Assembly: GCA_014654415.1 (NCBI GenBank)
Contig: JACWDC010000004.1
Location: forward strand, 37,375-101,374
Length of the DNA: 64,000 nt
DNA from: Pelagibacterales bacterium SAG-MED05
Lineage (GTDB): Bacteria; Pseudomonadota; Alphaproteobacteria; Pelagibacterales; Pelagibacteraceae
Direction: 5' to 3'
This document shows positions 423 to 4,457 of this stretch, in pieces (position 1 is the stretch's first letter; each line of letters starts with the position of its first letter). The notes below the pieces were generated by a model, which was not told the origin of the DNA, ran no database searches, and saw nothing but the letters and a program-made list of their open reading frames with translations. Position numbers and translations under genes: made by a program.

Positions 423-1724
423 ATGAAAAAAAAGAAAAAAAAAATTGTATACGTAGGTTTATCAGCAGATATTCTTCATGAAGGCCATATAAATATTCTT
501 AAAACCGCAAACAGTTTAGGAGATGTTATTGTTGGACTTTTAACAGATAAAGCAATTGCATCTTATAAAAACATACCAACATTGAATTACAAACAAAGAG
601 AGATAATTTTAAAAAATATTAAACTTGTTAAAAAAGTAATACCTCAAAACACATTAGATTATCGTCCAAATTTATTAAATATTATACCCGACTATGTCGT
701 GCACGGAGATGACTGGAAAACTGGTGTTCAGAAAACTACTAGGAAACAAGTTATTAATGCTTTAAAAAAATGGGGAGGAAAATTAGTAGAGCCAAAATAT
801 ACAAAAAATATTTCATCTAGTTCAATAAAGTCTAAGTTATCTAGACGATTAACGCCTACTTCTAGAGTTTCAATGCTCAAGAGAATGCTAGACAATAAAA
901 ATTTAGTAAGAGTATTAGAATCTCATAGTCCGTTATCGGGGTTAATTGCTGAAACTACAAAAATTGAAAAAGGAAAAAATACTCAGCAATTTGATGCAAT
1001 GTGGTCGTCTAGTTTGACGGACTCCAGTGTTAAAGGAAAACCTGACAATCAAGCTTTAGATTTTTCTTCTAGATTTAGTGACTTAGGAAATTTACTTGAT
1101 GTAACCTCAAAACCTTTAATATTTGATGCTGATAATGGAGGAAGGCTAGAACATTTACCATTTACCATTCGAACTCTAGAAAGACTTGGAGTCTCAGCAA
1201 TAATGGTAGAAGATAAAGTTGGTTTAAAGAAAAATTCTTTATTTAAAGATCAATCAGGCGCTAAGCAAGATACCATCAGAGAATTTTGTAAAAAGATTGA
1301 ATTAATAAAAAAAATCAGAAATTCGAAAGATTTTCTTATAGGAGCTAGAATAGAAAGTTTTATATTGGGCAAGGGTTTAAAAGATGGGTTAAAACGTGCA
1401 AAAGCTTATTCCCAAGCAGGAGCAGATTTAATCTTAATTCACAGTAAGGAAAAAAATCCAAAAGAAATATTTACTTTTTCTAAAATTTTTAGAAAGACAA
1501 AGTGGAATAAACCTCTTGTGTCTGTTCCTTCAACATATTCAAAAACTACAGAAAAAAAGTTAATTCAAAATGGTTTTAAAATAGTTATTTACGCTAATCA
1601 CATGTTAAGAGCATCATACCCAGCAATGCAAAATGCAGCTAAAAGTATATTAAAAAATCAAAGATCTTTTGAATTAGAAAACAAAATTAGTTCTGTAAGT
1701 GAAGTAATTAATTTAATTAAATAA
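423..1724 (+). CDS. pepM: Cytidylyltransferase-phosphoenolpyruvate mutase fusion (phosphonate biosynthesis)
   Basis: PEP mutase rearranges phosphoenolpyruvate to phosphonopyruvate, the step that makes the C-P bond. Residues about 8-140 are a nucleotidyltransferase domain with the HxGH motif (HEGH, residues 19-22) and an ISSSSIKS motif near 130. Residues about 160-420 are the PEP mutase barrel, with the diagnostic EDKVGLKKNS (263-272; family pattern EDKxxxxxNS that separates mutases from isocitrate lyase-like enzymes) and DADNGG near 236. The cytidylyltransferase domain probably activates a phosphonate or its derivative for transfer to a surface polymer (inference). The N-terminus is a Lys run encoded by poly-A. 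It is the first gene of an operon, and its stop overlaps the next start by one base. Confidence 0.93.
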   Translation: MKKKKKKIVYVGLSADILHEGHINILKTANSLGDVIVGLLTDKAIASYKNIPTLNYKQREIILKNIKLVKKVIPQNTLDYRPNLLNIIPDYVVHGDDWKTGVQKTTRKQVINALKKWGGKLVEPKYTKNISSSSIKSKLSRRLTPTSRVSMLKRMLDNKNLVRVLESHSPLSGLIAETTKIEKGKNTQQFDAMWSSSLTDSSVKGKPDNQALDFSSRFSDLGNLLDVTSKPLIFDADNGGRLEHLPFTIRTLERLGVSAIMVEDKVGLKKNSLFKDQSGAKQDTIREFCKKIELIKKIRNSKDFLIGARIESFILGKGLKDGLKRAKAYSQAGADLILIHSKEKNPKEIFTFSKIFRKTKWNKPLVSVPSTYSKTTEKKLIQNGFKIVIYANHMLRASYPAMQNAAKSILKNQRSFELENKISSVSEVINLIK

Positions 1725-2827
1725 TGATATTAGTAGAAAATCTAATTAAAACTTTAAAAAAAAATAAAATAAACTTTTTCACAGGGGTGCCAGATAGCAT
1801 ATTAAAGAACTTTTCTAGTCATGTTGAGAACTTCCCTAAAGAAAAACATGTTATTGCTACTAGCGAAGGTTCGGCAACTGCACTTGGAATTGGGTACTAT
1901 TTATCTACCAAAAAAATACCTTGTATTTATTTACAAAACTCAGGACTAAGTAATGCAATAAATCCTTTAATCTCCATCGCGAGTAAAGAAGTGTATTCAA
2001 TGCCATTATTTCTAATGATAGGCTGGAGAGGTGCACCTCGTAAAGAAGATGAGCCGCAACATATGGCTAAAGGGAAAATTACGCCAAAACTTTTGAAACT
2101 TTTAAAAATTGAATATTGTATTTTAAGAGAGCGCAAAGACTTAAATAAACTTGAAAAAATTATAAATATAGCAAATAAAAATAAAAGCATAGTTGCCTGT
2201 TTAATAGAAAAAGGAACACTGCAAATTAAAAACAAAAAAAGAAAAAGTTTAAATAATAAATTTATTTTTCGAGCAGAATTTATTAAAGAATTTCTGAATG
2301 AAGTGCCTAAGAAAAGTAAAATAATTTCAACAACGGGCTACACATCAAGAGAATTGATGGAAATTAGAAAAAACAATAAACTAGACAATGGAAAAGATTT
2401 TTATATGGTTGGAGGCATGGGCCACTCATCAAGTGTTGCACTAGGTTATGCTATACAATCTAAAAAAGAGGTGTTTTGTTTAGATGGCGACGGATCTATG
2501 TTAATGCATCTAGGTGCATTAAGAACCATTGGATATTTAAGCAACAAAAATTTTAAACACATAATATTGAATAATAATTCACACGAATCAGTTGGAGGAC
2601 AATTGACTACAGCAGGTGGAGTAGATATTAAAAAATTAAGTTCTAGCGTTGGATATAAAAATTATTTCATAATAAAAGATAAAAAAAATATCAAATCAAA
2701 AATTAAAAGTTTTATTAAAGCAAAAGGTCCATCTTTATTAGAAGTAAAAATTAATAACGGTTCTTTGAAAAACTTATCTAGACCAAAAAATTTGAAAAAA
2801 ATTAAAGATCAATTCATGATAAATTAA
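1724..2827 (+). CDS. aepY: Phosphonopyruvate decarboxylase
   Basis: This thiamine diphosphate enzyme decarboxylates phosphonopyruvate to phosphonoacetaldehyde, the irreversible step that pulls the unfavourable PEP mutase equilibrium forward. The protein has 367 residues, the single-polypeptide size usual for Ppd. The N-terminal pyrimidine-binding half carries the catalytic Glu in ATSEGSATALGIG (about 45-57). The C-terminal half carries the ThDP/Mg motif GDGSMLMHLGALRTIG (255-270) ending in NN at 283-284. The sequence NNNSHESVGGQ is characteristic of phosphonopyruvate/sulfopyruvate decarboxylases. Sulfopyruvate decarboxylase is the main alternative, but the PEP mutase next to it settles the substrate. 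The gene overlaps both neighbours by one base. Confidence 0.93.
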   Translation: MILVENLIKTLKKNKINFFTGVPDSILKNFSSHVENFPKEKHVIATSEGSATALGIGYYLSTKKIPCIYLQNSGLSNAINPLISIASKEVYSMPLFLMIGWRGAPRKEDEPQHMAKGKITPKLLKLLKIEYCILRERKDLNKLEKIINIANKNKSIVACLIEKGTLQIKNKKRKSLNNKFIFRAEFIKEFLNEVPKKSKIISTTGYTSRELMEIRKNNKLDNGKDFYMVGGMGHSSSVALGYAIQSKKEVFCLDGDGSMLMHLGALRTIGYLSNKNFKHIILNNNSHESVGGQLTTAGGVDIKKLSSSVGYKNYFIIKDKKNIKSKIKSFIKAKGPSLLEVKINNGSLKNLSRPKNLKKIKDQFMIN

Positions 2828-3936
2828 TGACTAATTTTACTTTTAATTCCTCTGAAGATCTTAAAATTTTTTTAAAAGATAATAAATTTAATAAAATATT
2901 AATTATATCAGGTGAAAAATCTTACAAGCTGTCAGGAGCTGATAAAATAATTAATGAATTATTGGTAAATAAAAACATTAAATATTTTTTTAAGAAATTT
3001 GCCTACCCTGATTTATTGGAATTAAAAAAGATTATTAAAGAAATAAATTTATTTGTACCAGATTTAATTATCGCCATAGGAGGAGGCTCAGTTCTTGATT
3101 ATGCAAAGATTGCAAATGTATTAGCCTATAGTGAAAATTTAGAGCAAGAAATATCAACTTCATCTTATAAAATTAGAGATAAATTTACTAAGCTTGTTGC
3201 AATTCCAACAACAGCAGGTTCCGGTGCTGAAGTTACTTCTAATGCAGTAATATATATTAATAAAATAAAATATTCAGTAGAGGGAGAAAAACTAAAACCA
3301 GATTTTTTCTTTTTAATACCTGAATTAGTTATAGCGGCATCATATAAAATCAAAGCTTCAGCAGGATTTGATGCTATAGCACAAGCTATGGAATCTTTAA
3401 TTTCAAAAAAATCAAATAATGAAAGTGTAAATTTTGCAGAAAAATCTCTTAAAATATCTTTGAAATATTATTTAGATTTTTTAAACAATCCTAATAAAGA
3501 CAATACTTCGGCTATGTGTTTGGCTGCCAATTTATCAGGAAAAGCAATTAGCATTTCAAAAACAACAGCTCCTCATGCTGTTTCATATCCTTTTACATCA
3601 ATTTATAATATCAGTCATGGCCATGCAGTTTCACTTACATTAAATAAATTTCTACAGTTTAATTTTGAGAATATTAAAAATTCAAATTGTAATTTTAGTT
3701 TAAAAGACAGATATCAAATAATGTTTGATGTTTCAAAGACTGATAGCATAGAAAGTTTTGACAAGTATCTATTTAATTTAAAAAAAAAAGCAAAGCTTGA
3801 AAATGATTTTATAAAATTAGGAATAGATTTAAAAAAAGATTATTCTAAGATTATTTCAGGAGTAAATATTTTGAGACTATCAAATAATCCTGTAGAATTA
3901 AAAAAAGAAGATTTAAAAGAGATTATTCTTAAATGA
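2827..3936 (+). CDS. Iron-type alcohol dehydrogenase, probable phosphonoacetaldehyde reductase (2-hydroxyethylphosphonate dehydrogenase)
   Basis: A group III metal-dependent alcohol dehydrogenase of 369 residues. It has the nucleotide motif GGGSVLDYAK (about 87-96) and PTTAGSGAEVTSNA (about 126-139). In the metal site, the usual DAxxHA reads DAIAQAME, so the first His is Gln, while the other positions appear as TTAPHAVSYPFTS and ISHGHAVS. From memory, this Gln variant and the TTAPHA/HGHA pattern are typical of the hydroxyethylphosphonate dehydrogenase branch (PhpC-like). The expected reaction is NAD(P)H reduction of phosphonoacetaldehyde to 2-hydroxyethylphosphonate. No aminoethylphosphonate transaminase is present in the cluster, which supports a hydroxyethylphosphonate product. 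It overlaps the kinase gene by four bases (ATGA). Confidence 0.85.
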   Translation: MTNFTFNSSEDLKIFLKDNKFNKILIISGEKSYKLSGADKIINELLVNKNIKYFFKKFAYPDLLELKKIIKEINLFVPDLIIAIGGGSVLDYAKIANVLAYSENLEQEISTSSYKIRDKFTKLVAIPTTAGSGAEVTSNAVIYINKIKYSVEGEKLKPDFFFLIPELVIAASYKIKASAGFDAIAQAMESLISKKSNNESVNFAEKSLKISLKYYLDFLNNPNKDNTSAMCLAANLSGKAISISKTTAPHAVSYPFTSIYNISHGHAVSLTLNKFLQFNFENIKNSNCNFSLKDRYQIMFDVSKTDSIESFDKYLFNLKKKAKLENDFIKLGIDLKKDYSKIISGVNILRLSNNPVELKKEDLKEIILK

Positions 3937-4457
3937 AAAAGAAAAATAAAAAAAAAGGAATTTTGTTTTGGATTACTGGTCTATCTGGAGCAGGAAAAAC
4001 TTCAGTAGCTAATGAAATTAAAAAAGAAATTACAAAACAATTTGGACCTACTTTAGTTTTTAATGGAGATGATCTAAGAAAAATATTTAATCTAAATAAA
4101 TATGATCAGAAATCTAGATTAGAAACTGGAAAAAACTATTGTAAATTTGCAAAGTTCATTACCGATCAAAATATAAATTTAATTTTTACTGTTGTAGGTA
4201 TGTTTGATCAGATTCGAAGTTGGAATAAAAAAAATATTAGCAATTATGTAGAAATATATTTAAAAGCAAGTGTTTCAAAAATTAAGGAAAAAAGAAAAAA
4301 AAAATTATATTTTAAAAAAAATAATTCTATTGTAGGCATACAAATTAAACCTCAATTTCCAAAAAAACCAAATTTTACTATTAAAAATGATTTTACTAAG
4401 AGTATTAAAGAAATATCTGGCTTCCTATTAAAAAAAATTATTAAAGCGAAAGTTTAA
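3933..4457 (+). CDS. CysC-like small P-loop kinase in the phosphonate operon
   Basis: This 174-residue P-loop kinase resembles adenylylsulfate kinase. The Walker A motif is GLSGAGKTS near residue 16-24, followed by FNGDDLRKIF where APS kinases have DGDxxR. The later APS kinase signature (FISPYR type) is replaced by VVGMFDQIRSW. The APS kinase C-terminal Phe/Lys substrate region is not recognisable. Neighbours are three phosphonate genes with translational coupling, and no sulfate-activation gene is nearby. SAR11 bacteria are known for lacking assimilatory sulfate reduction, so the substrate is probably not APS. Phosphorylation of hydroxyethylphosphonate or of a surface sugar is a reasonable inference. 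The last 17 bases overlap the convergent mrp gene. Confidence 0.75.
   Translation: MKKKNKKKGILFWITGLSGAGKTSVANEIKKEITKQFGPTLVFNGDDLRKIFNLNKYDQKSRLETGKNYCKFAKFITDQNINLIFTVVGMFDQIRSWNKKNISNYVEIYLKASVSKIKEKRKKKLYFKKNNSIVGIQIKPQFPKKPNFTIKNDFTKSIKEISGFLLKKIIKAKV

What the first reader, a model, noticed from the sequence alone, without database searches (positions are those of the whole stretch)
423..4457. Compact phosphonate operon ending in a CysC-like kinase: possible new phosphonate tailoring route
Four tightly coupled genes encode a cytidylyltransferase-PEP mutase fusion, phosphonopyruvate decarboxylase, a reductase with hydroxyethylphosphonate dehydrogenase-type motifs, and a kinase. Seen: HEGH plus EDKxxxxxNS in the fusion, DAIAQ instead of DAxxH in the reductase, and a P-loop kinase lacking the APS-kinase substrate signatures. 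Known: the first three steps lead PEP to 2-hydroxyethylphosphonate. Inferred: the kinase phosphorylates that product or a derivative, and the fused cytidylyltransferase activates it for attachment to a surface polymer.
Basis: partly seen in the sequence, partly recalled or inferred. Interest (0 to 1): 0.75.

Follow-up and report, generated by a model that had tools for sequence, protein, structure and literature searches.

The report
PAPS-like kinase in ocean phosphonate operon
A SAR11-like ocean bacterium carries a four-gene operon that makes a carbon-phosphorus compound, and its last gene is probably not a sulfate-pathway kinase but an enzyme that adds a phosphate 'handle' to the nucleotide-activated phosphonate so that a sulfotransferase-like enzyme can hang it on surface sugars, which would be a testable missing step in how the sea's phosphonates are made.

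Summary
Window 423-4457 holds four genes overlapping by 1-4 bp: a cytidylyltransferase-PEP mutase fusion, phosphonopyruvate decarboxylase, an iron-type alcohol dehydrogenase, and a CysC-like P-loop kinase.

The kinase nests in a tree inside kinases of glutamine-kinase clusters, the Campylobacter-type phosphoramidate pathway whose kinase (Cj1415) makes CDP-phosphoramidate 3'-phosphate. It does not group with CysNC APS kinases (AU p=0.010), and it lacks their motifs. No ATP sulfurylase, CysD/CysH or glutamine kinase was found in its 87%-complete genome.

Across 297 family genomes, kinase and PepM co-occur (13 genomes; nominal p=0.0003). Among PepM genomes, a sulfotransferase-like protein occurs in 7 of 13 with the kinase and 0 of 24 without. 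In three loci the two genes are immediate neighbours. Kinases of this family occur with HEP, AEP, HEPD and phosphoramidate pathways, so the shared substrate is the activated nucleotide.

Best reading: the kinase 3'-phosphorylates CMP-phosphonate, giving a PAPS-like donor for a sulfotransferase-fold phosphonotransferase. No activity was measured, the donor is inferred, and some kinase-bearing relatives have neither PepM nor glutamine kinase.

The parts
423..1724 (+). Cytidylyltransferase-PEP mutase fusion (433 aa)
   Evidence: PF01467 residues 15-137; TIGR02320 360.5 bits over cut-off 319.55
477..488 (+). HEGH nucleotidyltransferase motif
   Evidence: third motif ISSSSIK also intact
810..830 (+). 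ISSSSIK motif of the cytidylyltransferase domain
   Evidence: degenerate in AEP loci and in three of four HEPD loci
1209..1238 (+). EDKVGLKKNS, PEP mutase signature EDKx5NS
1724..2827 (+). Phosphonopyruvate decarboxylase (367 aa)
   Evidence: TIGR03297 387.4 bits over cut-off 312.5
2827..3936 (+). Fe-ADH family phosphonoacetaldehyde reductase candidate (369 aa)
   Evidence: PF00465/PF25137; TIGR03405 123 bits, below cut-off
3370..3384 (+). DAIAQ: Gln at the usual second metal-ligand His
   Evidence: conserved across SAR11 relatives
3933..4457 (+). CysC-like P-loop kinase, proposed CMP-phosphonate 3'-kinase (174 aa)
   Evidence: PF01583; PRK05541 subfamily; AF2 pLDDT 89.8, best PDB folds APS kinases; tree
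3978..4004 (+). P-loop GLSGAGKTS
4062..4082 (+). NGDDLRK: DGD motif with first Asp replaced; first Asp is kept in 79/79 glutamine-kinase-cluster kinases
4191..4235 (+). VVGMF and SWNKKN: APS-kinase ISP motif lost, W-N motif of phosphoramidate-cluster kinases present

Best explanation
The operon turns PEP into 2-hydroxyethylphosphonate (PepM, Ppd, Fe-ADH). The PepM-fused cytidylyltransferase makes CMP-HEP. The kinase phosphorylates the 3'-hydroxyl of the CMP ribose, giving 3'-phospho-CMP-HEP, a chemical analogue of PAPS. A sulfotransferase-fold enzyme then transfers the phosphonyl group to a surface glycan; the candidate in this genome is at G000:C33:54224-55318, in an O-antigen-like cluster. 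Shown here: gene identities, conserved motifs, tree position, co-occurrence and gene order. Inferred: the substrate, the 3' position, the HEP headgroup, and the transferase role.
For: (1) Window kinase is in a starred clade (98/88) with kinases of glutamine-kinase clusters, inside a larger starred clade of them (96/90); grouping it with CysNC is rejected, AU p=0.010. (2) 71 of 80 glutamine-kinase loci from many phyla carry this kinase, 9 as fusions to the glutamine kinase; C. jejuni Cj1415-1418 make CDP-phosphoramidate 3'-phosphate (PMC11800397). (3) No ATP sulfurylase, CysD/CysH or glutamine kinase was found in the own genome. (4) 41 of 297 family genomes have a stand-alone kinase: 13 also have PepM, 14 others have glutamine kinase, none has both. 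(5) Among PepM genomes, a sulfotransferase-like protein is in 7/13 with kinase versus 0/24 without, nominal p=0.00017; adjacent in L088, L094 and L116. (6) The own-genome protein keeps R163-x7-S171, the 3'-phosphate-binding pattern of sulfotransferases, and its block ST, NTP transferase, epimerase, P-loop kinase, GT2 matches the genes after the kinase in L094. (7) A family member from a phosphoramidate cluster folds closest to PAPS sulfotransferases. (8) The same kinase lineage sits in HEP operons and in a PepM-Ppd-AEPT-CTase-kinase operon, L089.
Against: About 14 of the 41 kinase-bearing genomes have neither PepM nor glutamine kinase found, including G192 (one contig, 99% complete), so the kinase is not tied to phosphonates everywhere. 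In G362 a window-lineage kinase lies beside an ATP-sulfurylase-like gene and a sulfotransferase-like gene. In G294 a protein 57% identical to the own-genome sulfotransferase shares an island with CysD-CysNC, so there it may be an ordinary PAPS enzyme. Four of 13 genomes with that protein have no kinase or CysNC found. The first Asp of DGD, kept in all phosphoramidate-cluster and CysNC kinases, is lost in 19/20 of the window lineage. The sulfotransferase model is low confidence (pLDDT 64) and the own-genome protein misses Pfam thresholds. In the window's genome kinase and transferase are on different contigs. Cj1415 itself could not be placed in the tree. P-values ignore relatedness.
Confidence: 0.62

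Rival explanations
1. True APS kinase: it makes PAPS and the partner is an ordinary sulfotransferase; the phosphonate genes are only neighbours.
For: APS-kinase fold; ATP-sulfurylase-like gene beside the kinase in G362 and in two HEPD loci; sulfotransferase with CysD-CysNC in G294.
Against: No PF01747 or PF01507 match in own genome; no ATP sulfurylase in 27 of 31 kinase genomes and no full-length CysD/CysH in any. The ATP-sulfurylase-like genes next to kinases have HTRNV/STRNI/TTRNI where the QxRNP motif is expected. APS motifs lost and tree position rejected. Own genome is 87% complete, so absence is not final.
Confidence: 0.1
2. One reading: the kinase phosphorylates the hydroxyl of HEP, and the fused cytidylyltransferase acts on that phosphate.
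For: Operon with a HEP pathway in the window, L088, L094, L115 and L116.
Against: Same kinase lineage in an AEP operon (L089) and same family in phosphoramidate clusters, where the headgroup has no hydroxyl. The Fom1-type fused domain is known to use HEP directly.
Confidence: 0.1
3. General 3'-kinase of CDP/CMP-activated headgroups of several kinds; in the window its substrate happens to be CMP-HEP but it could also serve another CDP-linked group made elsewhere in the cell.
For: About 14 kinase genomes without PepM or glutamine kinase; kinase next to a MobA-like NTP transferase in L152 and next to a methyltransferase-like family in L156, L159 and L161.
Against: In the window the kinase overlaps the HEP operon by 4 bp, with no other cytidylyltransferase in the operon.
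Confidence: 0.15

Closest known systems
Cytidine diphosphoramidate kinase Cj1415 and the Cj1415-1418 phosphoramidate pathway of Campylobacter jejuni (PMC11800397)
   Same: APS-kinase-family kinase working after a cytidylyltransferase to make a 3'-phosphorylated cytidine donor for a capsule modification; the window kinase nests among kinases of such clusters.
   Different: Here the operon makes a C-P compound with PepM, and no glutamine kinase was found in the genome. First Asp of DGD is lost.
Fom1 of fosfomycin biosynthesis and PntC nucleotidyl activation (PMC6697681)
   Same: N-terminal cytidylyltransferase fused to PepM; CMP-HEP expected.
   Different: No kinase is mentioned in that paper's text; here a proposed 3'-kinase follows.
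CysC / CysNC APS kinase with PAPS sulfotransferases
   Same: Same kinase fold and, if right, the same logic: nucleotide activation, 3'-phosphorylation, transfer by a sulfotransferase-fold enzyme.
   Different: Substrate motifs lost, no APS source found, tree position elsewhere.
SAR11 and Prochlorococcus phosphonate clusters (Acker et al. 2022, PMC8931226)
   Same: SAR11 PepM operons near surface-glycan genes.
   Different: A search of the main text found no mention of a kinase or of the word transferase on its own; supplements were not readable here.

Membership tests
APS kinase (CysC) | P-loop and APS-kinase fold | tested here: met
   PF01583; AF2 model best matched by APS kinases, TM-score mostly 0.76-0.82
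APS kinase (CysC) | DGDN, ENIRR and F-I-S-P-[FY] substrate motifs and FTG aromatic | tested here: not met
   window has NGDD, ETGKN, VVGMF and IVG; CysNC 12-14 of 14
APS kinase (CysC) | Scores as apsK equivalog | tested here: not met
   TIGR00455 70.4 versus cut-off 138.7
APS kinase (CysC) | APS source in the genome | tested here: not met
   no PF01747 or PF01507 match; genome 87% complete
APS kinase (CysC) | Converts APS to PAPS | not testable with these tools
   needs enzyme assay
Cytidine diphosphoramidate kinase (Cj1415 type) | Groups with kinases of glutamine-kinase clusters | tested here: met
   starred clades 98/88 and 96/90; AU p=0.010 against CysNC grouping
Cytidine diphosphoramidate kinase (Cj1415 type) | W-N motif | tested here: met
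   SWNKKN at 4218-4235; W 70/79 and N 75/79 in the clusters
Cytidine diphosphoramidate kinase (Cj1415 type) | Glutamine kinase in the genome | tested here: not met
   no match in own genome; same profile finds it in 15 other genomes
Cytidine diphosphoramidate kinase (Cj1415 type) | Direct similarity to Cj1415 | not tested
   no Campylobacter genome was among the 80 loci returned
PepM-cytidylyltransferase fusion (Fom1 type) | EDKx5NS and HxGH plus ISSSxIK | tested here: met
PepM-cytidylyltransferase fusion (Fom1 type) | CTP:HEP cytidylyltransferase activity | not testable with these tools
   needs enzyme assay
Sulfotransferase (own-genome partner, G000:C33) | Pfam sulfotransferase score | tested here: not met
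   no Pfam match at 0.001; relatives reach 27.1 bits (cut-off 27) and E 0.0026
Sulfotransferase (own-genome partner, G000:C33) | 3'-phosphate-binding R-x7-S | tested here: met
   RHPMASINS, R163-S171
Sulfotransferase (own-genome partner, G000:C33) | Sulfotransferase fold | tested here: inconclusive
   a relative from L187, pLDDT 64, all top PDB hits sulfotransferases, TM about 0.4-0.6

The most novel reading that the evidence does not exclude
Bacteria use a PAPS-like currency for phosphorus headgroups in general: a cytidylyl- (or, in the HEPD-type operons, possibly adenylyl-) activated phosphonate or phosphoramidate is 3'-phosphorylated by an APS-kinase-fold enzyme and transferred by sulfotransferase-fold enzymes to surface glycans. 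APS-kinase-fold enzymes would then have been recruited to PepM operons at least twice.
Probability: 0.4. Interest if true: 0.88.

Novelty: new variant of a known kind. Interest (0 to 1): 0.68.

Why it matters
SAR11 may make a large share of marine phosphonate (the estimate in PMC8931226 allows 75% of the sunlit-ocean budget), yet the step that attaches phosphonates to glycans is unknown. This reading names the donor (3'-phospho-CMP-phosphonate), the kinase and a transferase family, each testable in a simple enzyme assay. It also suggests that some genes annotated as APS kinase or sulfotransferase in genomes without sulfate activation handle phosphorus, not sulfur.

Tried and rejected
Kinase search in viral contigs: none. 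PDB sequence search with the own-genome sulfotransferase-like protein: none. Literature search for phosphonate + adenylylsulfate kinase + PEP mutase and for pepM + sulfotransferase: no papers in the open library. HEP-hydroxyl kinase rejected as main reading because the family also serves AEP and phosphoramidate loci. Single recruitment of all PepM-linked kinases not adopted: the HEPD-locus kinases (L102, L106, L109, L110) group with CysNC instead (95/83, long branch). I first took the HEPD-locus oxygenase for MpnS; PDB search shows it is closer to HEPD/PhpD. Cj1415 could not be fetched: the one genome-contig scan returned no Campylobacter. Two family-search calls failed on coordinates and were not all repeated, so the LicD-like and TagB-like labels rest on reading the sequence, not on a profile match.

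Full report
What is there. Bases 423-4457 hold four same-strand genes overlapping by 1, 1 and 4 bp. Profile searches identify a cytidylyltransferase-PEP mutase fusion, phosphonopyruvate decarboxylase, an iron-type alcohol dehydrogenase and a member of the APS-kinase family. The fusion keeps HEGH, ISSSSIK and EDKx5NS. The dehydrogenase has Gln in place of a metal-ligand His, and so do nearly all its SAR11 relatives. Left of the operon are a divergent membrane protein (DUF6044) and a family-2 glycosyltransferase; right of it is an opposite-strand Mrp-like ATPase gene (read from sequence).

The kinase is not a standard APS kinase. It passes the PRK05541 subfamily cut-off but misses apsK. Against 14 CysNC domains it lacks ISP, the N and RR of ENIRR, the FTG aromatic and the first Asp of DGD. 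The AF2 model (pLDDT 89.8) has the APS-kinase fold. No ATP sulfurylase (PF01747) or CysD/CysH (PF01507) was found in the genome. Of 31 kinase-bearing SAR11-family genomes, 27 lack PF01747 and none has a full-length CysD/CysH; the PF01507 matches are partial ones, nearly all in ORFs of about 520 aa, as expected of GMP synthetase.

Where its relatives sit. Of 297 family genomes, 36 have a PepM above the curated cut-off and 48 have a kinase match, 7 of these in CysNC fusions. The stand-alone kinase lies in 13 of 38 PepM loci, on either side of pepM. It also recurs with a 777-aa PEP-synthase-like protein, a class-I amidotransferase (best NCBIfam hit gamma-glutamyl-CDP-amidate hydrolase, 1e-33, below cut-off) and a MobA-like NTP transferase. 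That is the make-up of Cj1418-1417-1416-1415 of Campylobacter jejuni, which makes CDP-phosphoramidate 3'-phosphate (PMC11800397; which gene is which step is from my own knowledge). A scan with the 777-aa family fetched 80 loci from many phyla; 71 carry the kinase, 9 as a fusion with the glutamine-kinase-like protein. Of the 41 family genomes with a stand-alone kinase, 14 have the glutamine kinase, and none of those is among the 13 with PepM.

Tree. With 136 kinase domains the window kinase falls in a starred clade (98/88) with phosphoramidate-cluster kinases L035, L223 and L238, within a larger starred clade of such kinases (96/90). Holding the window lineage with CysNC is rejected (AU p=0.010). 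Four kinases from operons with a HEPD-like oxygenase group instead with CysNC (95/83, long branch), which suggests a second recruitment. In three of those four operons the fused cytidylyltransferase has lost its third motif, and in two an ATP-sulfurylase-like gene lies upstream with STRNI/TTRNI where QxRNP is expected. That hints at adenylyl in place of cytidylyl activation there.

The partner. A sulfotransferase-like family follows the kinase directly in L088 and L094 and is divergent to it in L116. Genome-wide, among PepM genomes it is in 7 of 13 with the kinase and 0 of 24 without (nominal p=0.00017; relatedness ignored). The window's genome has one at C33:54224-55318, with the R-x7-S pattern that binds the 3'-phosphate in sulfotransferases (role of the pattern from general knowledge). 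Its block of genes is colinear with the genes after the kinase in L094. A family member from a phosphoramidate cluster folds closest to PAPS-dependent sulfotransferases, at low confidence. In L100 and L108 the same chromosomal site holds PepM-Ppd-reductase without the kinase, and neither of those genomes (G290, G341) is among the 13 with the sulfotransferase-like protein.

Mechanism. Members of this kinase family serve HEP, AEP (L089: PepM-Ppd-transaminase-cytidylyltransferase-kinase), HEPD-product and phosphoramidate pathways. The shared element is the activated nucleotide, so phosphorylation of the CMP ribose 3'-OH is the most economical reading, as in Cj1415. The PAPS-like product would suit a sulfotransferase-fold phosphonotransferase. 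Shown: genes, motifs, tree, co-occurrence, gene order. Inferred: substrate, site, headgroup, transferase.

Limits. About 14 kinase genomes have neither PepM nor glutamine kinase found (several incomplete, G192 not), so other headgroups probably exist. G294 pairs a 57%-identical sulfotransferase with CysD-CysNC, and G362 pairs a window-lineage kinase with an ATP-sulfurylase-like gene. The conserved first Asp of DGD is lost in 19 of 20 window-lineage kinases, and the one that keeps it (L160) is in a glutamine-kinase cluster; this may mark the change of headgroup or a change of chemistry. Cj1415 was not in the tree.

Novelty. Cytidylyl activation of phosphonates (PMC6697681) and the phosphoramidate 3'-kinase are known separately. 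I found no paper in the open library joining them, though most subscription papers are not held. I file it as a new variant of a known kind.

Noticed in passing
L035, L160, L162-L167 (SAR11-family and class relatives): Glutamine-kinase / GATase / NTP-transferase / kinase clusters of the phosphoramidate type in SAR11-family genomes, found in 14 of 41 kinase-bearing ones; the open-paper search for SAR11 with phosphoramidate gave nothing relevant.
   Followed up: partly
L172, L182, L183, L190, L192, L194, L200, L204, L216: Kinase fused N-terminally to the glutamine-kinase-like protein (ORFs of about 980-1100 aa), mostly in Acidobacteriota.
   Followed up: no
L102:14887-17943, L109:2451-5461: ATP-sulfurylase-like protein with altered QxRNP motif, then a HEPD/PhpD-like oxygenase, then an APS-kinase-like kinase, beside a PepM whose fused cytidylyltransferase is degenerate: possible adenylyl-phosphonate route.
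   Followed up: partly
L004:11335-12291 (-), also L166, L249 and L256: Pyruvate-kinase-like proteins (318-454 aa) recur next to the sulfotransferase-like or kinase genes in surface-glycan islands; role unknown.
   Followed up: no
window 3370-3384: Iron-type alcohol dehydrogenase with Gln at a metal-ligand His position, conserved in the SAR11 family; metal use or mechanism may differ from PhpC/FomC-type enzymes.
   Followed up: partly
L083, L084, L085, L087, L090, L091, L111: A LicD-like family (label read from sequence, not profile-tested) occurs in 7 of 25 PepM loci without the kinase and 0 of 13 with it, as if two transfer routes replaced each other (p=0.07).
   Followed up: partly
L004:8202-8609 (-): Second APS_kinase Pfam match in the genome (29.5-30.7 bits) is a 135-aa P-loop protein of AAA_33 type in the O-antigen-like cluster, not a CysC.
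   Followed up: partly
G228:C1:97132-99347: Glutamine-kinase gene broken by several stop codons beside a kinase and a GATase.
   Followed up: no
L239: A glutamine-kinase/GATase pair on a contig labelled uncultured Prochlorococcus AH-321-P05; no kinase found on the stretch held.
   Followed up: no
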